Part shown: one piece after another, positions 1,950 through 35,172 of the stretch
Layout: each line of letters opens with the position of its first letter
How positions within the stretch are numbered: the first letter of the stretch is position 1
Translations under genes and position numbers: made by a program
Origin: an uncultured Bacteroidota bacterium
GTDB lineage: Bacteria > Bacteroidota > Bacteroidia > 2-12-FULL-35-15
Direction of reading: 5' to 3'
Assembly (NCBI GenBank): GCA_903847205.1
Contig: CAINDA010000041.1
Coordinates: 1-64,000 of the forward strand
Length of the DNA stretch: 64,000 nucleotides
The notes under the pieces: generated by a model
Databases searched by the model: none
Seen by the model: the letters and a program-made list of their open reading frames with translations, nothing else
Told to the model about the DNA's origin: nothing

Positions 1950-2816
1950 TTAGTTATCAGTGATTATTAATTTTTCTGATATTAAAACTTTATTATCCTG
2001 CATCAGGCGAATGAAATACAGCCCGCTTAATAGATCACCACGGCTGAAAGATACTGACTGGCCCGAAATGTTATTTATTCGTTTTGCTTCCTGTCCGCAT
2101 GCAGTATAAACTATCAGAGATGCATCTTTTAAAATTTCATTTGAATGCAGTGTTGCTTCGGAGATTAATGGATTTGGGTAAACTCCAGTAGTTTCCATAT
2201 TATTTATTTCATCAACTGAGGTCATTACATTACTAGTTATTTTATTAGTATGAGTCCAGGTATGCGTTTCAGAACTTGTATTATCGACGCCGCTCAAAAG
2301 AAAGTTATAGGTGCCGATATGAAGCCCTTCGCCGTACCAGGGATTCATAAAATAAATATTGTTTCCGCTAATACCATGGCCAACAATAAAGTGACCTCCG
2401 CCTGATGTCCAGCCCCAGCGGATCACAAACAATCTGTTGTTCTGAATTTCTGCGGCTATTTCAGTGAGCGTAAGCGGATTTGCAACACCTGTATTTTGAA
2501 TATTGCCGAAGTGAATTAAAATATCCTGAATACTGCCTGCATAGCCGTAATTATAGTTCCAGTAATTACAGCCCTGTGTTGCATTTGTGCAGCAGTTAAC
2601 TGTGCCGTAATTGTTAGCTGTTGCAGTGGTTCTTGTATATTCAGCTATATCACACTGGGAATGAACAAAGCCGTAATAATCAAGAACAGTTTTTGAACAT
2701 CCTGCCCAGCACCATTGATTATTCAGCTGTTCGTTATTAGTTACATTTAATACCTGAGCCTTGATAGAAAAAAGAAGGCAGGCTTGCAGTGCTAAAAGCA
2801 GCATTAATTTTTTCAT
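1950..2816 (-). CDS. Secreted papain-like cysteine protease with T9SS sorting domain
   Basis: The 288-residue product begins with a signal peptide (1-20, ending SIKAQ). The catalytic domain spans about 25-195. NNQWCWAGC at 32-40 gives a candidate oxyanion Gln34 and nucleophile Cys36. GGGHFIVGHGI supplies His142 and MNPW supplies Asn158, completing a papain-type triad like that of C70/C39-like bacterial peptidases. Extra cysteines (CCTNATQGC) may form disulfides outside the cell. Residues about 215-288 are a type A T9SS sorting domain (VYPNP at its start, GLYFIRL near the end), so export through the outer membrane is expected. A 211-residue secreted protein is encoded 23 bp upstream in the same direction and is probably co-transcribed. 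The substrate is unknown. Confidence 0.8.
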   Translation of the reverse strand: MKKLMLLLALQACLLFSIKAQVLNVTNNEQLNNQWCWAGCSKTVLDYYGFVHSQCDIAEYTRTTATANNYGTVNCCTNATQGCNYWNYNYGYAGSIQDILIHFGNIQNTGVANPLTLTEIAAEIQNNRLFVIRWGWTSGGGHFIVGHGISGNNIYFMNPWYGEGLHIGTYNFLLSGVDNTSSETHTWTHTNKITSNVMTSVDEINNMETTGVYPNPLISEATLHSNEILKDASLIVYTACGQEAKRINNISGQSVSFSRGDLLSGLYFIRLMQDNKVLISEKLIITDN

Positions 2817-2839
2817 GGGATTATTTATTTATTCATTTT

Positions 2840-3475
2840 CTATTTACCATCATTTTCCAGCCCGGCTGCCCTCATTGTTTCATCATAAAAAACGGCAATT
2901 TTTGTTTTTACCGGCAGCCCTTCATTCAATGAAAAAACGGGCTGTATCGATTTTGTATTAATCTCGGTAAAATCAGAATCATGGTTCTGCCCGCAGATAG
3001 CGGGGAAATTAATTGTAATGTAATCCTGCTTCAGGTAAGTGTTTCGGATGATAACACGCTGTGTTACTGCGTTTGGATATAATTTTTCGAACTCTTGTAT
3101 TTTTTGTGCGAGTATATTTCCTCCAAAATCAACAAGCTTTGCCTGGTCTTTAATAATTTTTAATGTAAGCAGCGAAATAAAATGCCCATCTACTGAAATA
3201 GGGACGCGCCATTCGTTACCGGAAATAAACATCAATTTATCATTTTTCTCAGAAACATAATAGGTTTGATAAGGCTCTTCAATTTTTATTTTTGAAAAAT
3301 CACTCCTCTTGTTAAAGCCATAGTCCTTTTCCCTGCCTTCCGGTATGAGGTTAAGGAAATAAAGTGCTTTTTGAGAAGCTTCTTCCTTAATCATCGAAAT
3401 AGTATTAATGTTTTGTGCAATTAGTTTTGCCGAAATAAAAAAGACTAGCAATAGATAGGAAGTTTTCTGTTTCAT
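2840..3475 (-). CDS. Secreted protein of unknown function, partner of the adjacent protease
   Basis: I do not recognise this 211-residue protein. It has a clear signal peptide (about 1-20, ending KLIAQ) and no sorting domain or membrane segment in the mature part, so a periplasmic location is likely. Notable stretches are EGREKDYGFNKRSDFSKI and YQTYYVSEKNDKLMFISGNEWRVPISVDG. The end of the gene lies 23 bp before the start of the cysteine-protease gene, on the same strand. The fixed pairing of a small periplasmic protein with a T9SS-exported protease suggests a chaperone, separate propeptide or inhibitor that keeps the enzyme inactive before export. That role is inference from context only. 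Confidence 0.6.
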   Translation of the reverse strand: MKQKTSYLLLVFFISAKLIAQNINTISMIKEEASQKALYFLNLIPEGREKDYGFNKRSDFSKIKIEEPYQTYYVSEKNDKLMFISGNEWRVPISVDGHFISLLTLKIIKDQAKLVDFGGNILAQKIQEFEKLYPNAVTQRVIIRNTYLKQDYITINFPAICGQNHDSDFTEINTKSIQPVFSLNEGLPVKTKIAVFYDETMRAAGLENDGK

Positions 3476-3655
3476 GATAATTGTTTTAATTTTTAATTTA
3501 GTACTCTTTATTATAGTTACTGCCTTTATTATTATGGCAGCACAGTGGAATGCGTAAACTTAATTAATTTTTAGCAGGCTTCAAAAACAAATATAAAGGA
3601 GAGAGGGCGCTTAACAATTTATCTTTGATTACCTCCTTGGGGCCGGCCTAGATTT

Positions 3656-5119
3656 TCATTTTTGACCTTCCAAAATTAATGCTGCTTTATTTACAAACTC
3701 CGACATGTTTTGATATTCGTTATTTGATAAAATTATTATAGTTTTTTCTTTGTCAATAAAATGTAATATAAAAGTATGGTACCCCGGCCAGGCGCCTGAA
3801 TGATAGGCTATGTTCTCAAACTTGCCGTCGCACTGTAATTCCCAGCCGTTTCCATAATTAATTTCTTCGCCCGACTTAAGTTTAGCTTTTGTAAATGCTT
3901 TATCTAATGTGCTTTTCAACACTAATTTATTTTCCCTTAATCCCTTGTCCCAAAGATACAAGTCCGAAATTGTAGAATTAACATCACCATCTCCGGTAAT
4001 AGCATCCATGTAAATAACAAAATCATAGTTGGGGAGAATATCCGGAAGTACATGTTTTTTCAAGCTGTCGGAATAAACATAACCATAGGCGTAATTGTTA
4101 ATTGATTCATGTTTAGTTCTTCTGGTGTTATATACGCGGGTGTTTTTCATGTGCAGCGGCTCAAAGATGTTTTTGGAAAGGTAATCACCATAGGTCATTC
4201 CCGATACTTTTTCGATGATTACAGAAAGCATGGCGTAGCCTGTATTGCTGTATTCATATTTTTTGCCGGGCTTAAAAAGTATTTTTGGTTTATACTTTTG
4301 GAAGCATGTAACAATATCATAATTAGAAGCATACTTTGTTTTGTCCCAATGTTTATCAAGCATTTCAAAGTAATCTGGTATGCCTGAGGTATGAGTCAGC
4401 AGATTTTCAATTGTAATATTTTTGTAAGGTAATCCTAGAATATATTTTTGAATGGTATCGGTATATTTTAATTTACCCTGCTCTGCCAGCATCATAATGG
4501 CCATTGCAGTGAACTGTTTACTGCATGACGCGAGCTCAAACATTGAGCTGTCGTTCAGAGGTGTTTTGTTTTCGTAATTTGAATAGCCGGTGCAGTTTTT
4601 ATAAATTACTTTTCCATTGTTTGCTGCCAACACGCAGCCATTAAAATGCCCTCCTTTGTTTTTGAGCTGTACAAGACTGTCAATGCTGTGCTTTATTGAA
4701 TTGTCGGAAGCTGAATTTGTGTTTGATTTTGGATATAATAACTTAACAGATTGATGGCTGAAGCCAATTATTTTATTTTTTTTTGTAAACTCAAAACCCA
4801 TATTTTCTCTCACTGTAGTATCGCCGCTATACACTAACTCTACAGAAACTTTAGAGGCTGTAATGTTTTTAATGCTTAGGACTGAAGCATTTCCATCCAT
4901 AGCATTCTGGGCTCCAAACATCTCTTTGGTTTTCCATTCAGATAAAACTAATTTCATTATCCAATGAAAGGAGCTTCGCATTTTTTTATAATCATGTTTG
5001 TTGTATCCGTCAAAAAAATTAGTAATAGCTGTTATTTGTCCATTTGGCAAGGGCTGCTGTGCAATGGCAAAACTGCTTAGGCTGAGAATAAAAACAAAAG
5101 TAAAAACACTTATTTTCAT
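3656..5119 (-). CDS. Serine beta-lactamase-like hydrolase (class C/PBP4*/EstB type)
   Basis: The 487-residue protein has a signal peptide (about 1-20). An NTF2/SnoaL-like N-terminal part (about 25-130) comes before the catalytic domain (about 145-485). The three class C motifs are visible: S198-C-S-K201 (SxxK), YSN in KKYEYSNTGYAM, and the HSG triad in IAYHSGAWPGYH. Proteins of this type are D,D-peptidases, esterases or beta-lactamases; the sequence does not say which. The HxG third motif, rather than KTG, leans towards esterase or peptidase. It is a single gene with 180 bp to its downstream neighbour and a hairpin terminator about 90 bp upstream that belongs to the preceding gene. Confidence 0.85.
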   Translation of the reverse strand: MKISVFTFVFILSLSSFAIAQQPLPNGQITAITNFFDGYNKHDYKKMRSSFHWIMKLVLSEWKTKEMFGAQNAMDGNASVLSIKNITASKVSVELVYSGDTTVRENMGFEFTKKNKIIGFSHQSVKLLYPKSNTNSASDNSIKHSIDSLVQLKNKGGHFNGCVLAANNGKVIYKNCTGYSNYENKTPLNDSSMFELASCSKQFTAMAIMMLAEQGKLKYTDTIQKYILGLPYKNITIENLLTHTSGIPDYFEMLDKHWDKTKYASNYDIVTCFQKYKPKILFKPGKKYEYSNTGYAMLSVIIEKVSGMTYGDYLSKNIFEPLHMKNTRVYNTRRTKHESINNYAYGYVYSDSLKKHVLPDILPNYDFVIYMDAITGDGDVNSTISDLYLWDKGLRENKLVLKSTLDKAFTKAKLKSGEEINYGNGWELQCDGKFENIAYHSGAWPGYHTFILHFIDKEKTIIILSNNEYQNMSEFVNKAALILEGQK

Positions 5120-20991: not shown

Positions 20992-21000
20992 GTTTATTTT

Positions 21001-21078
21001 GTGATTTAGTGATTTAGAGAATAAGTGATTTGAATTTTTTATAATTCTCCAACTCTCTATTTCCCAATTTCTCTAATT
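21001..21078. repeat. Spacer inverted word array (rpoA-rplQ)
   Basis: Left arm (21001-21036): GTGATTTAGTGATTTAGAGA, AAGTGATTTGAATT. Right arm (21043-21078): AATTCTCCAACTCTC, CCCAATTTCTCTAATT. The arms share words and are roughly complementary. Confidence 0.6.
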
Positions 21079-21084
21079 ATTTAA

Positions 21085-22077
21085 TTACTCTTTATCTAAT
21101 TTATATTTTGCTAAGTTCATTCCAAAAGTCAAGCCTTTGTTTGCAACTAAATCTTCTAATTCAGTTAATGATTTTTTGCCGAAGTTGCGGAATTTCAATA
21201 AATCATGTTTAGCAAATGATACTAAATCAGCAAGTGTATCAACATCAGCAGCTTTTAAGCAATTTAAAGCGCGTACCGATAAATCCATATCCACTAATTT
21301 AGTTTTCAATAACTGACGCATGTGTAATGAAGTTTCATCAAACTCTTCAGTAGCCATTTTTTCTTCAGTATCCAATGTGATACGCTCGTCAGAGAATAAC
21401 ATAAAGTGATGAATCAAAATTTTAGCTGCTTCTTTCAATGCTTCTTTCGGATGAATTGAGCCGTCAGTAACAATATTCATGATCAGCTTCTCATAATCTG
21501 TTTTTTGTTCAACACGGAAGTTTTCGATGCTGTACTGAACATTTTTGATAGGAGTATAAATAGAGTCGATTGGAATTAAACCTAAACTTGCATTAACCGG
21601 CTTGTTCTCTTCAGCAGGAACATAACCGCGTCCTTTGTCAATTGTTATTTCTAATTTAAGCTTTACGCTCGGCTCCATATTGCAGATAACCAAATTTGAA
21701 TTTAATACCTGGAATCCGGAAGTAAATTTACCGATATCGCCTGCAGTCAATTGAGTTTTGCCGGTGATAGTAACTGTTACTTTTTCAAAATCTGTAGTCT
21801 CAATCTGTTTCTTAAAACGAACCTGTTTAAGGTTAAGGATAATTTCAGTTACATCTTCAGTAACACCTTTAAGTGTAGAAAACTCATGTTCAGCTCCTTC
21901 AATTTTAATTGTAGTGATTGCATGGCCTTCAAGTGATGACAGCAAAATTCTTCTTAAAGCATTACCTACTGTAATACCATAGCCAGGCTCTAATGGACGG
22001 AATTCAAATTGTCCTTCAGTTTCACTGGAGTTAATCATAATAACCTTATCAGGTTTTTGAAAAGCTAAAATTGCCAT
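21085..22077 (-). CDS. rpoA: RNA polymerase alpha subunit
   Basis: 330 residues. The N-terminal domain (about 1-235) starts [19 protein letters not shown] and holds the dimerisation motif [17 protein letters not shown]. The C-terminal domain (about 250-330) has the helix-hairpin-helix DNA/activator-binding part: [35 protein letters not shown]. It assembles the core polymerase as a dimer and contacts UP elements and activators. Normal length and complete. 102 bp after rpsD, 93 bp before rplQ. Confidence 0.98.
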
Positions 22078-22086
22078 TGTATATAT

Positions 22087-22160
22087 AGTTATTAGTTAAT
22101 AGTTCTTAGTTAATAGTTTTTTGTAAAGTGAATAGTTTTATTTTCGATTGCCTATTCGCT
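22087..22160. repeat. Spacer direct and inverted repeats (rpsD-rpoA)
   Basis: AGTTATTAGTTAATAG and CTTAGTTAATAG are direct repeats (22087-22116). GTGAATAG near 22128 and CTATTCGC near 22152 are inverted. Same style as the other spacer arrays. Confidence 0.45.
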
Positions 22161-22179
22161 CCTGCCTCTTTTCTGTTTT

Positions 22180-22785
22180 TTATTTAGAGTACAATTCGAC
22201 AATGAGCTGTTCCTTAATGTTTTCCGGTATCTGAACTCTTTCAGGGATTGAAATGTATTTACCAGTCATGCTGGTTTTATCAAAATCCATCCAAGGGAAT
22301 TTATTAGATGCAGAAGCAACAGCATTATTTATAACTTCTAATGTTTTAGAACGCTCGCGTACTCCAACAGTATCACCTGCTTTTAAAATATAAGAAGGAA
22401 TATTTACAACAGCTCCATTAACGGTAATATGACGGTGTCCAACTAATTGACGTGCGCCGCTGCGTGTAGGAGAAATCCCCATACGGTAAACAACATTATC
22501 AATACGTGATTCTATCAGTTGAAGTAATACTTCACCGGTAACACCTTTGGCACTTTGTGCCATAGTATAAATTTTAGCAAACTGGCGTTCTAAAATACCA
22601 TAAGTATATTTTGCTTTTTGTTTTTCACGAAGCTGAACAGCGTATTCTGATTGTTTAGAACGTTTTTTAGATAACCCGTGCATTCCCGGAGGATAATTCT
22701 TTTTTTCTAATGCCTTATCCGGGCCAAAAATAGGTTCTTTAAATTTTCTTGCAATTCTTGATTTGGGGCCGATGTATCTTGCCAT
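22180..22785 (-). CDS. rpsD: 30S ribosomal protein S4
   Basis: 201 residues. It begins [18 protein letters not shown] and contains the S4 RNA-binding domain (about 93-155: [32 protein letters not shown]). It is a primary 16S rRNA binder that nucleates 30S assembly and, in E. coli, represses the alpha operon. The N-terminal zinc-binding cysteines of some S4 proteins are absent. It sits between rpsK and rpoA, as is usual. ATG in the context ACAAAATAAAATGGC. Confidence 0.97.
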
Positions 22786-22796
22786 TTTATTTTGTT

Positions 22797-22880
22797 ATTG
22801 ATTGTTAGTTGTTGGTTGTTTGCTGTCAAATAAATTTTTGACTTCGAACTTTCAAACTTTGAACTTTCAAACTTTGAACT
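22797..22880. repeat. Spacer word array with 15-bp period (rpsK-rpsD)
   Basis: GAACTTTCAAACTTT is repeated twice and a third partial copy follows (22846-22880). On the left a GTTAGTTGTTGGTTGTTTG word run lies at 22804-22822. Confidence 0.65.
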
Positions 22881-22889
22881 ATAATAATA

Positions 22890-23300
22890 TTAAACTCTTC
22901 TGCGTTTTGGAGGGCGGCATCCGTTGTGAGGAATAGGCGTAATATCCATTATTTCAGTCACTTCAATGCCAGCACCTGAAATAGTACGTATAGCTGATTC
23001 GCGGCCTGCACCTGGTCCTTTTACAAACACTTTTACTTTTCTTAAGCCTGCAAGATGAGCAACTTTTGCACAATCCTGAGCAGCTAATTGAGCAGCATAA
23101 GGTGTGTTCTTTTTAGAACCGCGGAAACCCATTTTACCAGCACTTGACCAGGAGATAACCTGACCGGCCATATTGGTTAATGAAATAATAATGTTGTTAA
23201 ATGTAGCACTGATATGTGCCTCGCCGATTGCGTCAACCTTTACAACTCTTTTTTTTGCAACTGCCTTTACTGCAGTTGTTGCTTGATTTTGTTTAGCCAT
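22890..23300 (-). CDS. rpsK: 30S ribosomal protein S11
   Basis: 136 residues. After a short basic N-terminal extension ([19 protein letters not shown]) the S11 core begins. Signatures are [20 protein letters not shown] and the near-invariant end [18 protein letters not shown]. It forms the platform of the 30S subunit with S6/S18 near the Shine-Dalgarno exit channel, which is notable because Bacteroidota rarely use Shine-Dalgarno pairing. Located between rpsM and rpsD. Confidence 0.97.
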
Positions 23301-23305
23301 TTTTA

Positions 23306-23372
23306 TAGTTTAAAAAGTTCAAAGTTTAAAGTTTTAAAGTTTGAACAACTTTAAAACTTCTAACTTTAAACT
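23306..23372. repeat. Spacer hairpin array (rpsM-rpsK)
   Basis: AGTTTAAAGTTTTAAAGTT (23323-23341) can pair with AACTTTAAAACTT .. AACTTTAAACT (23347-23372) across a 5-base loop. Additional AGTTTAAA/AGTTCAAAG words lie to the left. It is among the clearest hairpins of the family. Confidence 0.7.
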
Positions 23373-23376
23373 AATT

Positions 23377-23754
23377 TTATTTAGTTACTTTTTTCTTGTT
23401 TGCAACAGTCTTACGCTTGCCTTTTCTGGTACGCGCATTATTTTTAGTTGTCTGACCGCGTACAGGTAAGCCCAAACGGTGGCGAATCCCTCTGTATGCA
23501 CCAATATCCATTAAACGTTTTATGTTTAACTGAACCTCAGAACGTAAAGAACCTTCTAATTTATATTTTTCGTTAAGGATAGTACGAATAGCAGTTAACT
23601 GATCATCATTCCAGTCTTGAACTTTTACATTCACGTCAATTCCTGCTTCTTCCAGAACTTTTTTTGCTGTGCTGCGTCCTATACCGAAAATATAAGTCAA
23701 GCCAATTTCACCTCTTTTGTTATTTGGTAAATCAATACCTGCAATTCTTGCCAT
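23377..23754 (-). CDS. rpsM: 30S ribosomal protein S13
   Basis: 125 residues. It begins [19 protein letters not shown]. The helix-turn-helix core is followed by the conserved [24 protein letters not shown] in two parts, then a very basic tail ([15 protein letters not shown]). It sits in the head of the 30S subunit, contacts the P-site tRNA through its tail and forms bridges with L5. Normal length. 94 bp after rpmJ. Confidence 0.97.
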
Positions 23755-23765
23755 TGTTTTCTAAT

Positions 23766-23835
23766 TGTTGATTTGTTGATTTATTGATTTAGCGACTTAT
23801 TGATTTGTTTGAATTCTCCAAATCTCTAAATCTCC
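23766..23835. repeat. Spacer inverted word array (rpmJ-rpsM)
   Basis: Left arm has GTTGATTTGTTGATTTATTG and GACTTATTGATTTG. The right arm (23812-23835) is AATTCTCC AAATCTCT AAATCTCC. The right words are 8-base repeats. Confidence 0.6.
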
Positions 23836-23848
23836 ATTTTTTTAATTG

Positions 23849-23965
23849 TTACCCTTGTCTTTGTTTAAACTTAGGATTTTTTTTGTTGATAACATATAAA
23901 ACTCCGTTTCTGCGGACAATTTTACAATCAACACTTCTCTTTTTAATTGACGTTCTAACTTTCAT
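23849..23965 (-). CDS. rpmJ: 50S ribosomal protein L36, zinc-free type
   Basis: A 38-codon gene found by translating the gap between infA and rpsM. It starts [17 protein letters not shown] and ends [13 protein letters not shown]. The length and the KFKQRQG end are exact for L36. Only one Cys remains (Cys14), so the CxxC..C..H zinc ribbon of the classical form is lost; this is the zinc-independent variant. ATG at 23965, stop TAA at 23849-23851. Located where the spc/alpha junction normally carries it. Confidence 0.95.
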
Positions 23966-24027
23966 TTTACTGCGTGTTACGAATTTATAGTTTACAAATT
24001 TATGCTTTTTATTGGATTCTCAGGCAC

Positions 24028-24246
24028 TTATTTATACCTGTATGTTATTCTGCCCTTTGTTAAATCATAAGGCGACATTTCAATTTTTACTTTATCACCT
24101 GTCAAAATTTTAATATAGTGCATGCGCATCTTCCCGGAAATATGCGCTGTTATTACGTGTCCGTTCTCAAGCTCAACACGAAACATTGCATTTGACAATG
24201 CTTCTAAAATAGTTCCATCCTGTTCAATTGACGCTTGTTTCGACAT
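24028..24246 (-). CDS. infA: Translation initiation factor IF-1
   Basis: 72 residues, exactly the family length: [20 protein letters not shown], then [20 protein letters not shown], ending KGRITYRYK. It is a single OB-fold (S1-like) domain that blocks the ribosomal A site during initiation. Its position between map and rpmJ matches other Bacteroidota. 64 bp separate it from map and 62 bp from rpmJ. Confidence 0.97.
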
Positions 24247-24310
24247 ATATTTTATTTGGTAATTTAAATTTAAAAATCTAATAATCTGAAAACAACATTA
24301 ACATTTCAAA

Positions 24311-25108
24311 TCAGCATATTTTTAAATTTTTTCTTAATGCTTCTTCTATAAATTCAAAACTGGATAATATATCTGCTTTGTTCTTGCCGATAGCTATAGT
24401 ATGCTCAAAATGTGCCGAAGGTAAGTTATCAGCGGTACGTATTGTCCAGCCGTCTTTCTCTTGAATGATTGCTTTTTTACCTAAATTAATCATAGGCTCA
24501 ATTGCAATTACCAATCCTTCCTGCAGTTTTAAACCAGATCCCTTTTTACCGTAATTAGGTACTTCGGGTGATTCGTGAAGGTCTTTGCCTATACCATGGC
24601 CCACTAATTCACGTACTACAGAATATCCATTTGATTCAGCATGTGTCTGAACAGCTTCTCCGATATCTCCTAAACGATTGCCGACTATTGCAATTTCAAT
24701 TGCTTTATAAAGGCTCTCTTCAGTAATTCTGAGAAGATTCAACACTTCAGGTTTTACTTCGCCTATGGCAAAAGTGTATGCTGAATCGCCGAAATATTCA
24801 TTTTTAACCGCACCACAGTCAACAGAAACAATGTCGCCATCTTTCAACTCATACTTATTCGGTATTCCGTGAACTACATGTGAATTTATAGAAATGCACA
24901 AGGTATTCGGGAAACCGCTGTATCCTTTAAAAGCAGGGATGGCATGGTTATCATTTATAAACTCTTCTGCAATTTTATCCAGCGATAAAGTTGTAATTCC
25001 GGGTCTAATATATTTAGCGACTTCTGCTAAAGTTTTTCCAACAAGTAAAGAACTTTCTCGTATTAATTCAATTTCCTCTTTCGTCTTATAAAATAATCCT
25101 TTTGACAC
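24311..25108 (-). CDS. map: Methionine aminopeptidase, type I
   Basis: 265 residues. It removes the initiator Met from nascent proteins. The metal ligands can be followed: Asp in DIVSVDCG, Asp in YFGDSAYTF, His in ELVGHGIGKDLHE, Glu in AIEPMI and Glu in the C-terminal EHTIAIG region. His in SHVVHGIPN is the usual substrate contact. No N-terminal zinc finger, so type Ia. The start is GTG at 25106-25108, since no ATG lies nearby in frame before the conserved YKTKEEIELIRESS. Between secY and infA. Confidence 0.95.
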   Translation of the reverse strand: MSKGLFYKTKEEIELIRESSLLVGKTLAEVAKYIRPGITTLSLDKIAEEFINDNHAIPAFKGYSGFPNTLCISINSHVVHGIPNKYELKDGDIVSVDCGAVKNEYFGDSAYTFAIGEVKPEVLNLLRITEESLYKAIEIAIVGNRLGDIGEAVQTHAESNGYSVVRELVGHGIGKDLHESPEVPNYGKKGSGLKLQEGLVIAIEPMINLGKKAIIQEKDGWTIRTADNLPSAHFEHTIAIGKNKADILSSFEFIEEALRKNLKIC

Positions 25109-25120
25109 TCTTTTGTATTT

Positions 25121-25169
25121 GATGATTTTTGATTCAGAGATTTGTTTTAATTCTCCAATTCTCCAATTC
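25121..25169. repeat. Spacer array (secY-map)
   Basis: GATGATTTTTGATTCAGAG comes before three consecutive AATTCTCC words (25149-25169). The family resemblance is clear but the inverted pairing is weak. Confidence 0.5.
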
Positions 25170-25190
25170 TTTATTTCACTAATTAATTTT

Positions 25191-26531
25191 TTATGCAGTT
25201 GTCATGCTCATAGAAGAACGTCCTTTAATTCTTCCAGTTTTCATTAAGCCATCATAATGCCGCATTAATAAGTGGCTTTCAATCTGCTGCAAAGTATCTA
25301 ACACAACACCAACTAAAATCAATAAAGATGTTCCTCCGTAGAACTGAGCAAACTGCTGGCTGATGTTTAATTTAACTGCAAATGCTGGAATAATGGCTAT
25401 AAGAGCAAGAAAAATAGACCCTGGAAGTGTTATGCGCGACATAACAGCATCAATAAATTCAGCAGTTTTTTTACCAGGTTTGATACCCGGAACAAAACCT
25501 CCGTTGCGCTTCATATCTTCTGCCATTTGGTTAGGATTAACTGTAATGGCTGTATAGAAATAAGTAAATAAAATAATCATAAGGGCAAACACAACATTGT
25601 ACCAAAAACCATAATGGTTGGAGAAGGTGCCCACAAACCCTGACAAAGCCTCAGAATTAGAGAAGCCTACAATTGTTAAAGGAATAAACATAATTGCCTG
25701 AGCAAAGATGATAGGCATTACACCAGCCGCATTTACTTTTAACGGAATGTACTGGCGAACACCGCCATATTGTTTATTACCTACAATTTTTTTAGCAAAC
25801 TGTACTGGAATTTTTCTGGTTCCCTGCACTAATAAAATGGTTCCCATTATTATTAACAGTAAGAGAACAATTTCGATCAACAGCATTATCAAACCGCCGC
25901 CTTCACCGCCTAAACGATTACCGAACTCTGATACAAATGCAAATGGCAGCCGTGCAATAATACCAATCATAATGATTAATGAGATTCCGTTACCAATACC
26001 TTTGTCTGTTATTTTTTCGCCCAGCCACATTACAAACAATGTTCCTGTAATCAAAATAAGTACAGATTGAATGTACCAGAATGTGCTTGGATCGCCTACT
26101 ACACCAACCTTGTTTGTAATCTGGGTTGCAATATAACCCGGAGCCTGAAGCATTGTAATGATAACAGTTAAGAAACGGGTAATTTGATTAATTTTTGTCC
26201 GGCCGCTTTCGCCTGCCATCTGAAGCTTACGGAAATAAGGCAGCGCCATACCAAGCAACTGTATTACAATAGAAGCAGAGATGTATGGCATAATCCCAAG
26301 CCCGAAAACAGAAGCACGCGAAAACGCACCTCCCGCAAAAATATTAATTAAACCAACAATTCCTTCGTTAGCACCTTTATGAGATTCAGCAAGTGCTTCA
26401 GAGTTTACACCGGGAAGAACTATATAGGACCCCAAACGATAAATTAAAATAAACCCAAGAGTGTTCAAAATACGCACTCTTAAGTCTTCAATTCTCCAAA
26501 TGTTTCTTAATGTATTTATTAAGTTTTTCAT
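25191..26531 (-). CDS. secY: Protein translocase channel subunit SecY
   Basis: 446 residues with about ten transmembrane helices. It begins MKNLINTLRNIWRIEDLRVR. Motifs include the plug/TM2 region GIMPYISASIVIQLL, the cytoplasmic loop GKKTAEFIDAVMSRITLPGS and TM7-8 with VNAAGVMPIIFAQA. It forms the Sec channel in the cytoplasmic membrane through which unfolded signal-peptide-bearing proteins pass, so all secreted proteins of this window depend on it. Complete and of normal length. It follows rplO by 67 bp. Confidence 0.97.
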   Translation of the reverse strand: MKNLINTLRNIWRIEDLRVRILNTLGFILIYRLGSYIVLPGVNSEALAESHKGANEGIVGLINIFAGGAFSRASVFGLGIMPYISASIVIQLLGMALPYFRKLQMAGESGRTKINQITRFLTVIITMLQAPGYIATQITNKVGVVGDPSTFWYIQSVLILITGTLFVMWLGEKITDKGIGNGISLIIMIGIIARLPFAFVSEFGNRLGGEGGGLIMLLIEIVLLLLIIMGTILLVQGTRKIPVQFAKKIVGNKQYGGVRQYIPLKVNAAGVMPIIFAQAIMFIPLTIVGFSNSEALSGFVGTFSNHYGFWYNVVFALMIILFTYFYTAITVNPNQMAEDMKRNGGFVPGIKPGKKTAEFIDAVMSRITLPGSIFLALIAIIPAFAVKLNISQQFAQFYGGTSLLILVGVVLDTLQQIESHLLMRHYDGLMKTGRIKGRSSMSMTTA

Positions 26532-26598
26532 AAAACAGTGTTCATGGTTTGAGGTTCTTTATATCTGTTAATTTAAAATACAAACAACAAATAATAAA

Positions 26599-27060
26599 CT
26601 AATTAACTTTTTCAATAGAAACTGCAGTGCCTCCCTGAGCTTCAATTGCAGTTTTTGCAGCTGCTGAAAAAGAATGTACTTTTATTTCAACTTTTGATTT
26701 TAACTCACCGCGGCCAAGTATTTTTACTTTGTCGTTCTTGTGGGCTAATCCTTTTGAAACTAAGAAGTCTATATCAATAGTGCTTATCTTATTATCATTT
26801 ACCAAAGCCTGGATAACATCTAAATTTACACCGCGGTATTCAATACGGTTGATATTTTTGAATCCGAATTTAGGAACACGTCTTTGCAAAGGCATCTGCC
26901 CTCCTTCAAAACCTCTTTTTGCAGAATATCCTGAACGGGACTGTGCACCTTTATGGCCTTTTGTGGATGTTCCGCCTTTACCGGAACCTTGTCCTCTGCC
27001 TATACGTTTTTTAGCATTTTTAACCGAACCTTCTGCCGGTGTTAAGTTACTTAAGTTCAT
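26599..27060 (-). CDS. rplO: 50S ribosomal protein L15
   Basis: 153 residues. The Gly-rich N-terminus (NAKKRIGRGQGSGKGGTS, then KGHKGAQSRSGYS) and GFEGGQMPLQRRVPKFGF are the L15 signatures. It is a late-assembly protein that binds domains II and V of 23S rRNA. It comes before secY in the spc block. Normal length. Confidence 0.97.
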   Translation of the reverse strand: MNLSNLTPAEGSVKNAKKRIGRGQGSGKGGTSTKGHKGAQSRSGYSAKRGFEGGQMPLQRRVPKFGFKNINRIEYRGVNLDVIQALVNDNKISTIDIDFLVSKGLAHKNDKVKILGRGELKSKVEIKVHSFSAAAKTAIEAQGGTAVSIEKVN

Positions 27061-27095
27061 CTTTTTTATTTATTTATTTGGAGGTTTGCTTTATC

Positions 27096-27121
27096 CGGAG
27101 ATTTAACTTTTAAATTCTCCG
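27096..27121. repeat. Hairpin in rpmD-rplO spacer
   Basis: CGGAGATTTA and TAAATTCTCCG pair with one bulge around an ACTTT loop. It uses the same AATTCTCC word as other spacers. Confidence 0.55.
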
Positions 27122-27133
27122 TTATGCAGTTCT

Positions 27134-27310
27134 CTAATTTATTACCGTTACTAAATGTGCGACTTTTTTTATCATGCCTGTAATCTGAGGCGTTTCTTCT
27201 TTTTCAATAGTCTGGTTCATTTTTGTAAACCCAAGAGCACGCAGTGTGCGTTTTTGACGCTCAGGACGATTGATACCGCTTTTTGTCTGTTTTATTTTAA
27301 TTGTAGCCAT
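27134..27310 (-). CDS. rpmD: 50S ribosomal protein L30
   Basis: 58 residues from MATIKIKQTKSGINRPERQK. It has the usual RTLRALGFTKMNQTIE core and ends KKVAHLVTVIN. It stabilises 23S rRNA domain II. I chose the ATG at 27310 because L30 proteins start at this point and are about 60 residues. An in-frame upstream start at 27337 would add nine residues inside the preceding word array. Between rpsE and rplO. Confidence 0.95.
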   Translation of the reverse strand: MATIKIKQTKSGINRPERQKRTLRALGFTKMNQTIEKEETPQITGMIKKVAHLVTVIN

Positions 27311-27319
27311 TTTTTTATT

Positions 27320-27392
27320 AATTTGATAATTCGGCAATTTGACAACTTGAAAATTGCATTAGCACATTTTCAAAGTTTCAAAGTTTCAAATT
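27320..27392. repeat. Spacer hairpin array (rpsE-rpmD)
   Basis: Left arm 27320-27356: AATTTGATAATTCGGCAATT, GACAACTTGAAAATTG. Right arm 27365-27392: CATTTTC AAAGTTTC AAAGTTTC AAATT. The reverse complement of the right arm, AATTTGAAACTTTGAAAC.., aligns with the left. Confidence 0.7.
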
Positions 27393-27396
27393 AGAT

Positions 27397-27915
27397 TTAT
27401 CCTTTAAATACTTTTTCCATTGAAATACCGCGGTGCTGCGCTACAGTAGCTGCATCACGCATCTGCGTAAGTGCATCCATAGTTGCTTTAACAACGTTGT
27501 GAGGGTTAGACGATCCTTTAGATTTAGCCAACACGTCAGTAACACCAACGCTTTCAAGAACGGCACGCATCGCACCGCCTGCAATAACACCAGTACCATG
27601 AGCAGCTGGTTTCAGAAATACTAATGCACCTCCGAATTTACCATATTGTTCGTGAGCAACAGTCCCTTTTACGATAGCTACTTTTATCAAATTCTTTTTA
27701 GCATCATCAATTCCTTTGGTGATAGCATCAGTAACTTCTTTAGCTTTTCCTAAACCGTAACCTACAATACCTTTTTCGTTTCCTACCACTACTATGGCAG
27801 AAAATGTAAAGTTTCTTCCGCCTTTAGTAACTTTAGTTACACGTTGAATGCTGACAAGCTTATCCTTTAATTCGATATCGCTTGATTTTACTCTTTTAAT
27901 GTTAGTGTTTGACAT
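27397..27915 (-). CDS. rpsE: 30S ribosomal protein S5
   Basis: 172 residues. The double-stranded RNA-binding fold has [20 protein letters not shown] and [19 protein letters not shown] near the N-terminus. [19 protein letters not shown] follows in the C-terminal half. It lies at the mRNA entry channel; with S4 it governs decoding fidelity and mRNA unwinding. Normal length. 78 bp after rplR. Confidence 0.97.
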
Positions 27916-27922
27916 TATTTTC

Positions 27923-27993
27923 GATTTATTGATTTGGTGATTTGTGTTTCGGCGGATTAGAATTTTCTAATTCCCTATGCGGCAAATCTCTAA
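27923..27993. repeat. Spacer inverted word array (rplR-rpsE)
   Basis: Nested hairpin GGATTAGAA/TTCTAATTCC at 27954-27973 inside an outer pairing of GATTTATTGATTTGGTGATT with GCGGCAAATCTCTAATTA. It runs up to the rplR stop codon. Confidence 0.6.
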
Positions 27994-28350
27994 TTAAAAT
28001 TTAAGTCCTGCTTCACGTGCAGCTTCTGCCAATGATTTAACACGGCCATGATATAAATAACCATTTCTGTCAAAGCGTACTGATAAAATACCAGCTTTAG
28101 CCGCTTTTTCAGCGATAGTTTTTCCAACTAATTTAGCCTGGTCAATTTTGTTTCCTTTAACATCAGCAATACCTTTATCTGAAGAAGAAGCAGCTAATAA
28201 TGTACTTCCGGAAACATCATCAATTAATTGAGCATAAATTCCTTTATTGCTTCTGAAAACAGAAAGTCTTGGACTTGCAGCATCGCCGGTTACAACTTTG
28301 CGGATACGCATCTTGATTTTTGTTCTTCTAATATTCTTTTCTAAGGCCAT
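27994..28350 (-). CDS. rplR: 50S ribosomal protein L18
   Basis: 118 residues: [38 protein letters not shown] and the end [19 protein letters not shown] match L18. It binds 5S rRNA with L5 and carries it into the central protuberance. Normal length. Between rplF and rpsE, flanked on both sides by spacer arrays. Confidence 0.97.
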
Positions 28351-28358
28351 TTTTATTT

Positions 28359-28436
28359 AATTTGATATTTTACTGATTCGATGATTTGAAACTGTTTAAC
28401 GATTTTCAAACTATCCAATTTTCAAATTGATTGATT
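28359..28436. repeat. Spacer inverted word array (rplF-rplR)
   Basis: Left 28359-28394 has AATTTGATATTTTACTG and GATGATTTGAAACTG. Right 28400-28436 has GATTTTCAAACTATCCAATT and TTCAAATTGATTGATT. Confidence 0.55.
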
Positions 28437-28440
28437 CATT

Positions 28441-28995
28441 TTATTTACCTGCTGATTTACCAGCTTTTCTTCTTAATATTTCACCTGCGAACTTAATACC
28501 TTTTCCTTTATAAGGTTCAGGTTTACGCAATGAACGTATTTTAGCAGCAACTGCACCGATTAACTGTTTATCAGCACACTCTAAAAATACAGTTGGGTTT
28601 TTACCTTTTTCAGTTGTTGTAGTTACTTTAATTTCAACCGGCAGTTCAAAGGAAACGTTGTGAGAATAACCTAATGTTAACTCTAACATCTGACCTTTAT
28701 GTGCTGCACGAAAACCAACACCCACAAGTTCTTGTTCAGTCTTATAACCTTCGTTAACGCCTTTAATCATTGAAGCAATTAATGCGCGGTATAAACCATG
28801 CATTGCTTTGTGCCTTTTTTGTTCAGTGGCGCGTTCTAATATAATTTTACCTTCAACATTTTTGAGGGTAATAGAAGAGTCCATTTTTTGAGTCAAAGTA
28901 CCTTTAGCACCTTTTACGGTAACTAAATTTTTATCTGAAACATTTACCTCCACACCTTTGGGAAGCACAATTGGTAATTTACCTATTCTTGACAT
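28441..28995 (-). CDS. rplF: 50S ribosomal protein L6
   Basis: 184 residues with two L6 repeats: MSRIGKLPIVLPKGVEVNV at the start, and LELTLGYSHNVSFELP, then RKPEPYKGKGIKFAGEILRR at the end of the second. It sits at the base of the L7/L12 stalk near the sarcin-ricin loop, where elongation factors bind. Normal length. 80 bp after rpsH. Confidence 0.97.
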   Translation of the reverse strand: MSRIGKLPIVLPKGVEVNVSDKNLVTVKGAKGTLTQKMDSSITLKNVEGKIILERATEQKRHKAMHGLYRALIASMIKGVNEGYKTEQELVGVGFRAAHKGQMLELTLGYSHNVSFELPVEIKVTTTTEKGKNPTVFLECADKQLIGAVAAKIRSLRKPEPYKGKGIKFAGEILRRKAGKSAGK

Positions 28996-29075
28996 TTTAT
29001 TTTAAGTTTAAGAGTTAAAAGTTTAAAGTCCAAAGCTGCACCTGCAGCAAGAAAATCAAAACCTAAAACAAATTT

Positions 29076-29471
29076 TTAATATACATAACACAATACTTCT
29101 CCGCCTACTTTCTGTGTTTTAGCTTCTTTATCAGTCATTACACCTTTAGAAGTAGAAATGATGGCAATACCTAAACCATTTAAAACTCTCGGAAGTTTCT
29201 GTGATCCGGCATATTGTCTTAAACCTGGAGTACTTACTCTTGAAATATTTTTGATAGCTGATTGTTTACTTACCGGGTGGTATTTCAGAGCAATTTTAAT
29301 TGCGCCCTGAGCGGTAGAGTCTTCGAATTTGTAGTTTAAAATATAGCCTTTTTCGAAAAGAATTTTTGTTATTTCCTTTTTTAGGTTGGAAGCAGGAATT
29401 TCGACTATTCTGTGGTTTGCTTTAATAGCATTTCTTACTCTTGTAAGGTAATCTGCAATGGTATCTGTCAT
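29076..29471 (-). CDS. rpsH: 30S ribosomal protein S8
   Basis: 131 residues: MTDTIADYLTRVRNAIKANH at the start and GLGIAIISTSKGVMTDKEA near the end, finishing GGEVLCYVY as S8 proteins do. It binds helix 21 of 16S rRNA and, in E. coli, represses the spc operon by binding the rplE region. Whether that control holds here cannot be read off. 156 bp after rpsN, the longest spacer in the cluster. Confidence 0.97.
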   Translation of the reverse strand: MTDTIADYLTRVRNAIKANHRIVEIPASNLKKEITKILFEKGYILNYKFEDSTAQGAIKIALKYHPVSKQSAIKNISRVSTPGLRQYAGSQKLPRVLNGLGIAIISTSKGVMTDKEAKTQKVGGEVLCYVY

Positions 29472-29538
29472 TTTATTTGGTTTTATATCTTATCCCGCAC
29501 GCAGGATAATTATATATTAATACTCTATTTTAATATTT

Positions 29539-29623
29539 AGTGATTTGTCGATTTAGAGATTTGTTGATTTATTACATTATTTATTTAAATCTCCAATTTT
29601 CTAATTCTCCAACTCACAAATTC
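29539..29623. repeat. Spacer inverted word array (rpsN-rpsH)
   Basis: Left 29539-29573: AGTGATTTGTCGATTTAG, AGATTTGTTGATTTATT. Right 29586-29623: TAAATCTCCAATTTTC, TAATTCTCCAACTC, ACAAATTC. It ends 5 bp from the rpsN stop. A further 60 bp between 29475 and 29535 is plain AT-rich sequence. Confidence 0.6.
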
Positions 29624-29627
29624 TTTT

Positions 29628-29897
29628 TTACCAGCTTGATTTTGTGATGCCCGGGATTAAACCATCCAAAGCCATTTCACGGAATGAATTTCTGGAAAGA
29701 CCGAATTGGCGCATATAACCTCTTGGACGGCCGGTTAATTTGCAGCGGTTGCGCTGGCGCACCGGAGACGAAGCTCTTGGAAGTTTTTGTAAACCTACAG
29801 AATCCCCTGCTGCTTTTAAAGCGGCTCTTCTATCAGCGTATAGATCAGCAAGTCTTTTGCGTTTAACTTCTCTTGCTTTCATTGATTCTTTTGCCAT
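29628..29897 (-). CDS. rpsN: 30S ribosomal protein S14, zinc-free type
   Basis: 89 residues: [40 protein letters not shown] and [20 protein letters not shown]. Only one Cys, so this is the long C-minus form rather than the 61-residue zinc form. It belongs to the 30S head. 9 bp after rplE; this short spacer has no word array. Confidence 0.97.
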
Positions 29898-29906
29898 CGA
29901 CTTATA

Positions 29907-30464
29907 TTATTTTTTTTGATTTTTAAATGGTAATCCAAATTCGCTTAACAAAGCCAAAGCTTCATCATCATTATCTGCTGTGGTAACAATGGTAATATCC
30001 ATTCCCATTATTTTACTCACTTTGTCAATATCTATTTCCGGAAAAATAATCTGCTCGGTAACTCCTAAAGTATAATTGCCGTTACCGTCAAATCCTTTTT
30101 CGTTAATTCCTCTGAAATCACGAATTCGCGGCAAAGCTACGGAAATTAATCGATCTAAAAACTCAAACATTGTATCTCCGCGTAAAGTTACTCTAACCCC
30201 GATAGGAACCCCTTTACGAAGTTTGAAGTTAGAAATATCTTTCTTAGAAATAGTTGCAACAGCTTTTTGACCGCTGATAGTGGTCATTTCTTTTATTGCA
30301 CCTTCTATTAATTTTTTATCAGAAACAGCATCGCCGATTCCCTGATTAAGGCAGATCTTTGTTATTTTCGGCACCTGCATTGAACTGCTGTATCCGTATT
30401 TTTTTTGTAAAGCGGGAACAACGTCTGCTTTATACTTGTCTTTTAATCTCGGTGAATATGCCAT
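29907..30464 (-). CDS. rplE: 50S ribosomal protein L5
   Basis: 185 residues: [40 protein letters not shown] and [19 protein letters not shown] are L5 signatures. It binds 5S rRNA in the central protuberance and contacts P-site tRNA. Its ATG shares one base with the rplX stop (TAATG), so the two are translationally coupled. Confidence 0.97.
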
Positions 30465-30790
30465 TATTTAATTACCTCCCCTGTTTTTTTTGAGTAACGT
30501 ACTAATTTGTCGCTTTTTTCGTCTAGTTTTCTGCCTATACGGGTTGGTTTACCTGTACCCGGCTCAATTACCATAAGATTAGAAACATGAACTGAAGCTT
30601 CCTGCTTCACAATTCCGCCTTGAGCGTGTTTTGCACTTGGTTTAGTATGTTTTGATACTAAATTAATGCCTTCCACAATGGCACGGTTTTTTACTCTGTC
30701 TATTGACAGAATTTTACCTTCTTGATTTTTTGAATCACCGGCGATAACTTTAACTGAATCGCCTTTTTTGATATGTAACTTTGCTTGCAT
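30464..30790 (-). CDS. rplX: 50S ribosomal protein L24
   Basis: 108 residues. KOW motif near the start ([23 protein letters not shown], in two parts) and [20 protein letters not shown]. It initiates 50S assembly at 23S rRNA domain I and lines the exit tunnel. 20 bp after rplN and overlapping rplE by one base. Confidence 0.97.
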
Positions 30791-30810
30791 TGCTGTATTT
30801 AATTATTCAC

Positions 30811-31179
30811 CTACAGAACTTCTGGAGCCAGTGAAATTATTTTCATAAATTGTTTATCTCTCAGTTCACGGGCAACCGGCCCGAAAATACGTGTGCCTCT
30901 TAACTCATCTGCTGCATTTAATAATACAACAGCATTATCGTCAAAGCGGATATATGATCCATCTGCTCGTCTTACTTCTTTTCTGGTTCTGACAACAACA
31001 GCTTTTGAAACAGCGCCTTTTTTAATGTTGCCTGATGGCAATGCATGTTTCACAGTTACTACCACTTTGTCGCCGATTGAAGCATATCTCTTTTTTGTTC
31101 CGCCAAGTACACGGATAACTAAAACCTCTTTTGCTCCGCTGTTATCCGCAACTAATAATCTTGATTCTTGTTGTACCAT
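30811..31179 (-). CDS. rplN: 50S ribosomal protein L14
   Basis: 122 residues, the exact family length: [40 protein letters not shown] and [23 protein letters not shown] in two parts. It binds 23S rRNA near L19 and forms an intersubunit bridge; it is also the target of RsfS silencing. 113 bp after rpsQ with a word array between. Confidence 0.97.
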
Positions 31180-31187
31180 TTTTTTAT

Positions 31188-31284
31188 ATTTCGGATTTCG
31201 GATTTGTGATTTCGGATGTTACCGGATCATTTCCTTAACCTATTGTTTAATTTTTAAAATCCGCAATTGCAAATTCGCAATCGG
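31188..31284. repeat. Spacer inverted word array (rpsQ-rplN)
   Basis: Left 31188-31218: ATTTCGGATTTCGGATTTG, TGATTTCGGATG. Right 31256-31284: AAAATCCGCAATTGC, AAATTCGCAATCGG. Here the shared word contains CGG instead of GAG, so each array has its own word. Confidence 0.65.
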
Positions 31285-31292
31285 CATTTATA

Positions 31293-31550
31293 TTATTTCA
31301 CTTTTTCAAGAACTTCAACCAGTCTCCAGCATTTGTTTTTGCTGATAGGGCGGGTTTCCATAATTTTTACGCTGTCGCCGATGCTGCAGATATTTGCTTC
31401 ATCGTGTGCCGTAAACTTGGTTGTTTTCTTAAGAAACTTACCGTATTTAGGATGTTTTACTTTACGTTCAACAGACACAACTATTGACTTATCCATCTTG
31501 TTGCTGGTTACTAAGCCGATTTTTTCTTTTCTTAAATTTCTATCTTCCAT
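31293..31550 (-). CDS. rpsQ: 30S ribosomal protein S17
   Basis: 85 residues: [40 protein letters not shown] and [20 protein letters not shown]. An OB-fold protein that binds 16S rRNA helices 7 and 11 early in assembly. 8 bp after rpmC, with no array in between. Confidence 0.97.
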
Positions 31551-31558
31551 TTTTGAAA

Positions 31559-31762
31559 TTATTTTTTTGCTAATGCTAATTCTCTGCTGCGAAGTTCTGT
31601 TTGTAATCTCGCTACTGTTTTTCTGCTGAAAGTAATTTTCAACGGGTTTTCAATTGGAGATACTGAGTGATTCAGCTTTAATTTAGCCAAAGTACTTTTT
31701 TCTTCTTTTATTCTTCCGTTAAGATCGCTTGTAGAAAGTTGTTTAATATCTGCCTGTGTCAT
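31559..31762 (-). CDS. rpmC: 50S ribosomal protein L29
   Basis: 67 residues of two antiparallel helices: [20 protein letters not shown] and [20 protein letters not shown]. It sits at the tunnel exit beside L23, near the SRP and trigger-factor docking sites. It follows rplP by 36 bp in the S10 block. Confidence 0.96.
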
Positions 31763-31798
31763 TTTATTTATGTATTAATTCTCTCAATTAATTTTTGC

Positions 31799-32233: not shown

Positions 32234-32305
32234 TTTGTATTGTAATTAAAAGTTATATTTAAGCTTTTGTATTTTGATAATTAAATATCAGTTAAAATAG
32301 TTTAA

Positions 32306-33094: not shown

Positions 33095-33104
33095 TGAAAT
33101 TATA

Positions 33105-33527: not shown

Positions 33528-33535
33528 TGTTATTT

Positions 33536-33612: not shown

Positions 33613-33616
33613 CATT

Positions 33617-33895: not shown

Positions 33896-33955
33896 TTTTA
33901 TTTGTTTTTAGTTGTGAACCCTTTCGTTAAAAAGAAGCCATTAAACTAGGTTAAA

Positions 33956-35124: not shown

Positions 35125-35172
35125 TTTTTTAAAATTTGATAATATATCTTACAAAATCTTTAAATTAACTTA

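What the first reader, a model, noticed from the sequence alone, without database searches (positions are those of the whole stretch)
1950..3475. Protease/partner gene pair: T9SS papain-like enzyme with a small secreted companion
A 211-residue exported protein of no family known to me is encoded 23 bp upstream of a cysteine protease with an intact Cys36/His142/Asn158 triad and a T9SS sorting domain. The protease has almost no propeptide (the triad Cys is only about 15 residues after the signal peptide), so a separate inhibitor or folding partner would be needed. The pair may form a small toxin/predation or defence module with a bound inhibitor.
Basis: inference. Interest (0 to 1): 0.5.

Follow-up and report, generated by a model that had tools for sequence, protein, structure and literature searches.

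The report
Protease with separately encoded prodomain-like partner
A secreted papain-like protease that lacks the usual built-in safety domain is encoded next to a separate small exported protein whose predicted shape resembles such a safety domain, and similar gene pairs occur in distantly related bacteria.

Summary
In detail: a 211-aa exported protein (2840-3475, -) lies 23 bp upstream of a 288-aa papain-fold protease (1950-2816, -) with Cys36/His142/Asn158, an oxyanion Gln30, a type A T9SS sorting domain and no room for a propeptide. The pairing is real. In partner-first searches, 13 of 13 new relatives with E below 1e-4 lie beside the protease or are fused to it (loci read in 15, 21, 22, 28, 41). 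A natural single-chain protease-partner fusion exists (L033). Candidate pairs occur in Actinomycetota, Pseudomonadota and a phage-like contig, though homology of those partners is only suggested. The partner has no significant Pfam, NCBIfam or PDB sequence match. Its confident AlphaFold2 model (pLDDT 90) has prostaphopain B as best PDB match by two programs, over residues 53-191, before the catalytic part (223-397). Best reading: a split zymogen, with the prodomain encoded in trans to bind the enzyme and fold or restrain it before T9SS export. Binding and inhibition are not shown; the pair model was uninterpretable (pTM 0.43). The toxin, predation and defence idea has no support at this locus. 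Not every protease of the wider family has a partner: 7 of 14 in one census show none.

The parts
2840..3475 (-). Partner gene, 211 aa, exported, no known sequence family; predicted prodomain-like (cystatin-like helix plus curved sheet) fold
3413..3475 (-). Likely signal peptide of the partner (about residues 1-21, read by eye)
   Evidence: hydropathy
2817..2839 (-). 23-bp gap between the two genes; no promoter-like sequence noticed in it
1950..2816 (-). Protease gene, 288 aa, papain-fold cysteine protease with T9SS sorting domain
2757..2816 (-). Likely signal peptide of the protease (about residues 1-20, read by eye)
   Evidence: hydropathy
2223..2756 (-). Catalytic domain, residues 21-198 (Peptidase_C39_2; the model of its relative in L026 is nearest to staphopains and ComA/PCAT1 peptidase domains)
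2727..2729 (-). Gln30, oxyanion-hole residue
   Evidence: invariant column
2709..2711 (-). Cys36, nucleophile
   Evidence: invariant column
2391..2393 (-). His142
   Evidence: invariant column
2343..2345 (-). Asn158 (Asn or Asp in relatives), before invariant Pro159
1962..2183 (-). T9SS type A C-terminal sorting domain, residues 212-285
3588..3595 (-). TATATTTG, matches the Bacteroidota -7 box TAnnTTTG (consensus recalled), with ATTG 19 bp upstream (3615-3618); candidate promoter of the two-gene operon
   Evidence: not tested

Best explanation
A split zymogen. The protease is a papain-fold enzyme made without a propeptide; its prodomain is a separate protein from the gene just upstream. Both go through Sec to the periplasm (inferred from signal peptides). 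There the partner binds the nascent enzyme, helps it fold and/or covers its active-site face so that it does not attack periplasmic proteins (inferred). The enzyme's sorting domain then takes it through the type IX system to the cell surface or medium, while the partner, which has no sorting domain, stays behind or is degraded; export or loss of the partner is the activation step (inferred). Shown here: gene pairing, correlated divergence, a natural fusion, the missing propeptide, hydrophobic N-termini, the sorting domain, and fold resemblance of the partner model to the prostaphopain B proregion. Not shown: binding, inhibition, folding help, substrate.
For: Pairing: 13 of 13 new partners with E below 1e-4 found partner-first are beside or fused to the protease. 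Natural fusion L033, 427 aa, protease then partner in one chain; the window group of partners matches the group that holds the fusion (hhalign 98.1%, P 9e-14, signal peptides included). In L026 the two genes are in one frame, 9 nt apart. Fold: partner model pLDDT 90.4, pTM 0.85 from 8 sequences; first hit of Foldseek among 350,542 PDB chains is 1x9y prostaphopain B (probability 0.91, E 0.059); VIA-align Z 6.8, rmsd 4.3, 121 residues, chain residues 53-191, next best Z 4.7, a designed cystatin fold. The protease half of the L026 pair model aligns to staphopains (Z 10.8, rmsd 3.9, 154 residues, 1cv8; ComA within 0.5 Z) and to residues 223-397 of 1x9y, so 53-191 lies before the catalytic part; C243 is the staphopain B active-site Cys (passage in PMC7863939). 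The pair model has 1x9y as its only Foldseek hit with E below 0.001 (4.1e-5, 430 columns), though that is not independent of the partner-only match. Partner and protease distances correlate: Mantel r 0.69 (61 of 5000 permutations as high), 0.82 (0 of 5000), 0.94 (0 of 5000) in three sets.
Against: The fold match alone is not significant: Foldseek E 0.059, and Z 6.8 is within the range the tool calls common. No sequence match of the partner profile to a protease chain in the PDB (only 2pnq at E 0.81) or to a Pfam family. In the pair model the relative placement does not match 1x9y (rmsd 19.7) and pTM is 0.43, so no interface is shown. Wider relatives of the protease do without a recognisable partner (7 of 14, read; 3 of 4, read), among them exported ones (L101, L145, L148). 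Correlated divergence also follows from simple co-inheritance. In the fusion and in 21 of 30 pairs listed the partner comes after the enzyme, unlike a classical N-terminal propeptide.
Confidence: 0.62

Rival explanations
1. The partner is a steric foldase only (as Lif is for lipases, recalled): it is needed to fold the enzyme and does not inhibit it.
For: No propeptide in the chain; in Actinomycetota the candidate partners have a C-terminal hydrophobic stretch and basic tail, as a membrane-held folding factor would.
Against: The nearest fold, the staphopain B proregion, belongs to a zymogen; propeptides usually do both (recalled), so this is hard to tell apart.
Confidence: 0.17
2. Toxin and immunity pair: the protease attacks other cells and the partner protects the producer, like Cpe1/Cpi1.
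For: Papain-fold toxin domains are neighbours by profile or fold (CdiA chains E 7e-4; 9l5u Z 9.3 and 8ssm Z 8.7); the Burkholderia pair L059 lies near polymorphic-toxin genes; the partner diverges faster than the enzyme (mean identity 0.38 against 0.50 in 9 pairs).
Against: T9SS export and no recognised delivery domain; the partner is exported with the enzyme, while Cpi1 protects against a toxin whose targets GyrB and ParE are inside the cell (passages); no PADLOC hit; partner identity tracks enzyme identity; no further partner copy in the genome (1 match in G000 at E up to 10).
Confidence: 0.12
3. The partner is a dedicated substrate, anchor or surface cofactor of the protease, with no inhibitory role.
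For: Obligate pairing alone would fit; Actinomycetota partners look membrane-anchored.
Against: Prodomain-like fold; fusion in one chain.
Confidence: 0.06

Closest known systems
Staphopain B zymogen (prostaphopain B, PDB 1x9y; MEROPS C47)
   Same: Catalytic fold of the L026 relative (Z 10.8 to 1cv8; ComA peptidase domain within 0.5 Z) and partner fold resembling the part before it, residues 53-191; in the T9SS type the partner gene comes first, as the proregion does
   Different: Prodomain is a separate exported protein; no sequence match to the C47 family or the proregion; T9SS domain; Bacteroidota
Staphopain/staphostatin, SpeB/Spi, and Bacteroides C10 protease/staphostatin-like pairs (Bfp/Bfi, Btp/Bti; passages of PMC3462683)
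   Same: Papain-fold protease coupled to a small neighbouring inhibitor gene; Bacteroides members have leader peptides on enzyme and inhibitor
   Different: The Btp proteases also carry a propeptide in the chain (so do staphopains and SpeB, recalled); those inhibitors are of other families; here no propeptide and a new partner family
I29 propeptide-like inhibitors (CTLA-2alpha, crammer, BCPI; starts of abstracts in the listing: PMC4089206, PMC3551606)
   Same: Free-standing propeptide-like inhibitors of papain-like proteases
   Different: Animal, helical I29 fold (recalled); partner here is alpha plus beta and encoded next to its enzyme
Cpe1/Cpi1 (passages of PMC12136450)
   Same: Papain-fold protease with a neighbouring binding protein
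   Different: T6SS or CDI delivered toxin; Cpi1 is an immunity protein that competes with substrate binding without occluding the active site

Membership tests
Pfam PF13529 Peptidase_C39_2 | Score above the curated cut-off | tested here: met
   28.0 bits against 24; 30.7 for the catalytic domain alone
Pfam PF12385 Peptidase_C70 (AvrRpt2) | Score above the curated cut-off | tested here: not met
   window 17.6 against 19; the fusion L033 passes with 44.4, so the window enzyme is at the edge
MEROPS C47 staphopain | Sequence family PF05543 | tested here: not met
   1 of 11 family members at E 0.11, window none
MEROPS C47 staphopain | Catalytic fold | tested here: met
   Z 10.8, rmsd 3.9, 154 residues to 1cv8 for the catalytic part of L026, 67% identical to the window's; ComA peptidase domain tied within 0.5. 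A shared fold, not membership; the window enzyme itself was not modelled
MEROPS C47 staphopain | N-terminal propeptide in the same chain | tested here: not met
   about 15 residues between signal peptide and Cys36
Staphopain propeptide-like fold (partner) | Fold match to proregion of 1x9y | tested here: inconclusive
   rank 1 by two programs but E 0.059 and Z 6.8
Staphostatin, Spi or I29 inhibitor families (partner) | Sequence match to any Pfam family | tested here: not met
   no Pfam family for the window partner even at E 5; only chance-level hits for other members, none of an inhibitor family
T9SS type A cargo | TIGR04183 sorting domain above cut-off | tested here: met
   34 bits against 23
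Cpe1/Cpi1-type effector-immunity pair | Delivery domain on the protease, cytosolic immunity protein | tested here: not met
   only catalytic and T9SS domains recognised; partner has a signal-peptide-like N-terminus
Protease inhibitor | Inhibits the enzyme | not testable with these tools
   needs purified proteins

The most novel reading that the evidence does not exclude
A widespread, so far undescribed class of split zymogens: papain-fold proteases whose prodomain is a separate co-encoded protein, in Bacteroidota, Actinomycetota, Pseudomonadota and a phage-borne lineage, with the prodomain moved between in-trans and in-chain forms, before or after the enzyme, and in the same compartment as the enzyme (periplasmic, lipoprotein, membrane-anchored or cytosolic).
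Probability: 0.45. Interest if true: 0.72.

Novelty: new variant of a known kind. Interest (0 to 1): 0.52.

Why it matters
It would give a function to a protein family that has none in Pfam or NCBIfam and to genes annotated only as hypothetical beside a 'papain-like cysteine protease family protein'. It would show that a prodomain can be carried by a separate gene, suggest how T9SS-exported proteases are kept quiet in the periplasm, and offer a simple, testable inhibitor-enzyme pair. The fusion and the in-frame neighbours show plausible steps between one-chain and two-chain zymogens.

Tried and rejected
Complex prediction: the two genes of L026 read through their stops as one chain gave pLDDT 66, pTM 0.43; no interface is claimed. 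Sequence link of the partner to solved structures: none. The first protease search used the wrong part (sorting domain included) and returned mostly T9SS tails; not used. Eleven marginal partner hits at E 0.003-0.0385 (L002, L020, L021, L034, L035, L040-L045) have no WCWA protease in the loci, which reach about 1.5 kb or less each side; I judged them chance (short or N-terminal matches in unrelated ORFs), but one, L035, lies at the N-terminus of another papain-like peptidase (by eye), which I did not follow. Plasmid tblastn with the window partner: no match. Viral scans with single proteases: none confirmed. Joint profile iteration did not recruit the Actinomycetota partners. Foreign DNA: GC of the pair 0.368 against 0.356 (sd 0.025) for pieces of the window and rpoA, secY, ribosomal and EF-G genes about 18-36 kb away, so no sign of recent import by composition, although only 1 of 36 genomes of the genus has the partner. 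Families absent from the fold lists (SpeB or interpain proregions for the partner) are not excluded by that.

Paper searches for prior description; the listings shown did not include a description of this pair. Only PMC papers under open licences are held and listings were capped, so this is not proof that it is unpublished.

Full report
Observation. The protease has PF13529 (28.0 bits, cut-off 24), the T9SS type A domain TIGR04183 (34 bits, cut-off 23) and conserved Gln30, Cys36, His142 and Asn158-Pro159. About 15 residues separate the likely signal cleavage site from Cys36, so no propeptide is present. The partner has a hydrophobic N-terminus and no significant Pfam, NCBIfam, PADLOC, PHROG or PDB sequence match. 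Signal peptides were judged by eye and by hydropathy only.

Is the pair conserved, starting from the partner? Search of 395 genomes of the class with the window partner: 5 hits, the window and G047, G071, G213, G398; all 4 others lie next to the protease. The profile A1 in the same number of class genomes added G223, next to the protease, and G036, which was already a seed of the profile (it had come in through the protease); two more hits (G081, G127; E 0.007 and 0.010) were judged chance. The profile A4 in 395 genomes of the phylum added G557, G069 (paired) and G581 (fused); G595 and G743 (E 0.003, 0.009) were judged chance. A6 in 149 genomes of the family of G223 added G819 (paired) and 6 hits at E 0.003-0.007 judged chance. 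In the class of G581, 1 of 98 genomes, G581 itself, has a match. So 13 of 13 new, non-seed partners with E below 1e-4 are beside or fused to the protease: G047, G071/L027, G213/L026, G398/L025, L022, L023, L024, L028, G223, G557, G069, G581, G819. The eleven marginal hits are listed under Tried and rejected. The partner is rare: 1 of 36 genomes in the window's own genus at E up to 0.01.

Starting from the protease the link is looser. In 149 class genomes, 5 hits: the window, G047, G071, G036 paired, G135 not. In 296 phylum genomes, 14 hits at E up to 1e-5: the window, G069, G223, G557 paired, G581 fused, G270 with a co-directional neighbour 3 bp away of the Azospirillum/Nocardia type, G580 with a weakly similar 146-aa exported neighbour (HMM E 0.22); 7 without a recognisable partner (G538, G565, G544, G433, G574, G584, G524; for G538 the downstream side lies outside the locus). 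tblastn of the fusion protein against plasmids gave 14 records; I opened 13. In 12 a co-directional gene for a 179-301-aa protein starts 4-46 bp after the protease: Streptomyces, Embleya, Streptantibioticus (9 records), Bifidobacterium, Azospirillum, Nocardia; the 13th, labelled Klebsiella (L057), has only an 86-aa exported ORF, perhaps a remnant. Two more loci from a second search (Burkholderia L059, Embleya L060) are also paired. Of 73 viral contigs with the NWCWAA DNA pattern, 4 encode a protease of this profile, one paired (L103, the same contig as L061) and three not (L101, L108, L129). On a 43-row protease tree the paired label, candidates included, needs 4 changes against 10.7 in shuffles (0 of 500 as low); 8 of the 12 unpaired rows form one clade. 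That tree leaves out G580 (L146) and counts L057 as unpaired.

Are the distant partners one family? Within Bacteroidota yes: the window group and the group with the fusion match at hhalign 98.1% (P 9e-14, signal peptides included). Beyond it, evidence is suggestive only: hhalign probabilities are low, 0.2-7% (P 0.005 for the fusion group against the Azospirillum/Nocardia/Burkholderia type, 0.0098 for Actinomycetota against A6, and 0.027, 0.16 and 0.25 for the other pairings). In HMM searches of 533 or 562 ORFs the best non-seed hits were mostly protease neighbours: L011 4.2e-4, L033 0.0092 and L061 0.04 with the G223-type profile; L143 5.9e-17 with the Azospirillum-type profile; L049 0.022 with the joint Bacteroidota profile (its only hit) and again with the Actinomycetota profile, after L053; two ORFs that are not neighbours also appeared (L053 4747-5226, E 0.13; L061 1631-2122, E 0.47). 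I therefore call the non-Bacteroidota cases candidate pairs.

Anatomy across pairs (30 pairs, start codons of unannotated genes chosen by me). Nine T9SS-type Bacteroidota pairs have the partner first, with gaps of 5-131 bp (the sorting domain was tested by HMM in the window only; similar tails in the others by eye); the other 21 have the protease first, with gaps of 3-46 bp. Exported enzymes go with exported partners; in four pairs (L050, L058, L059, L143) and in the fusion neither has an evident signal peptide. In the Actinomycetota and Bifidobacterium partners a hydrophobic C-terminal stretch and basic tail suggest membrane anchoring. Some Bacteroidota members look like lipoproteins (L011 and L032 partners; L019, L031, L032, L039 proteases; by eye). 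No sorting domain was recognised in any of 11 partners scanned. Start sites were ambiguous for L053, L055, L056 and L060.

Structure. The mature window partner, in an alignment of 8 sequences, folds with pLDDT 90.4 and pTM 0.85: a long helix, a sheet of four long strands, a helix, then short strands and a last helix. Foldseek against 350,542 PDB chains puts 1x9y, prostaphopain B, first (probability 0.91, E 0.059). VIA-align puts 1x9y first with Z 6.8, rmsd 4.3, 121 residues, chain residues 53-191; the next is a designed cystatin fold at 4.7. The tool warns that Z under 8 may be only a common arrangement. What gives it weight is which chain it is: the same papain-fold class as the neighbouring gene, and the part before the catalytic domain, since the protease half of the pair model matches residues 223-397 of 1x9y (Z 9.2) and staphopains (Z 10.8 to 1cv8, rmsd 3.9, 154 residues; ComA and other papain-fold peptidases within 1 Z), and the active-site Cys of staphopain B is C243 (passages of PMC7863939). 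The pair model from L026 has 1x9y as its only hit with E under 0.001 (4.1e-5 over 430 columns) but with rmsd 19.7, pLDDT 66 and pTM 0.43: domains recognised, mutual placement not.

Co-inheritance. Distances of partner and protease correlate (Mantel r 0.69, 61 of 5000 permutations as high, 9 pairs; 0.82, 0 of 5000, 14 pairs; 0.94, 0 of 5000, 10 Actinomycetota pairs). The partner diverges faster (mean identity 0.38 against 0.50 in the first set). This shows travel together, not contact. A Bacteroidota-type promoter-like box (TATATTTG, 3588-3595) lies 120 bp upstream of the partner; none was noticed in the 23-bp gap (consensus recalled).

Mechanism. The best reading is a split zymogen, as stated above, confidence 0.62. 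Rivals are a pure foldase, a toxin-immunity pair, and a cofactor or anchor. Known relatives of the idea are staphopain/staphostatin, SpeB/Spi and the Bacteroides C10/staphostatin-like pairs (passages of PMC3462683), I29 propeptide-like inhibitors of animals (starts of abstracts), and Cpe1/Cpi1 (passages of PMC12136450). In the Bacteroides C10 case the enzymes also have a propeptide in the chain; here the separate gene seems to replace it.

Verdict. The inhibitor or folding-partner idea is supported in outline and sharpened to a prodomain in trans; the predation or defence idea is not. New variant of a known kind; interest 0.52.

Noticed in passing
L033:790-2073 (G581): Natural single-chain fusion of the protease with the partner at its C-terminus, without an evident signal peptide; the only partner match in 98 genomes of that class searched.
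   Followed up: partly
L061:2911-4149 (IMG/VR contig IMGVR_UViG_2851199456): An exported protease and partner-like gene inside a run of phage tail/baseplate-like genes (by eye).
   Followed up: partly
L059:2381-3518 (Burkholderia contaminans plasmid): Protease and candidate partner without evident signal peptides, near genes annotated as polymorphic toxin type 15 and GAD-like.
   Followed up: no
L141, L142, L144, L147 and kin: A separate clade of short WCWAA proteases without a recognisable partner, mostly outside the window's class.
   Followed up: partly
L148:1792-2379 (-) and L145:715-1206 (-): Partnerless exported proteases have other small exported or repeat proteins as neighbours, which may be partners of another kind.
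   Followed up: no
L035:496-1704 (-): A marginal partner-profile hit (E 0.009, profile positions 1-67) lies at the N-terminus of another papain-like peptidase (GTCWDFS motif, by eye); chance or a distant in-chain form.
   Followed up: no
window 3656-5119 (-): Exported protein with a serine beta-lactamase-like domain, upstream of the pair and on the same strand; probably a separate transcription unit.
   Followed up: no
window about 21000-39000: RpoA, SecY, ribosomal protein S3 and EF-G genes, so the pair lies in core chromosome though it is rare in the genus.
   Followed up: no
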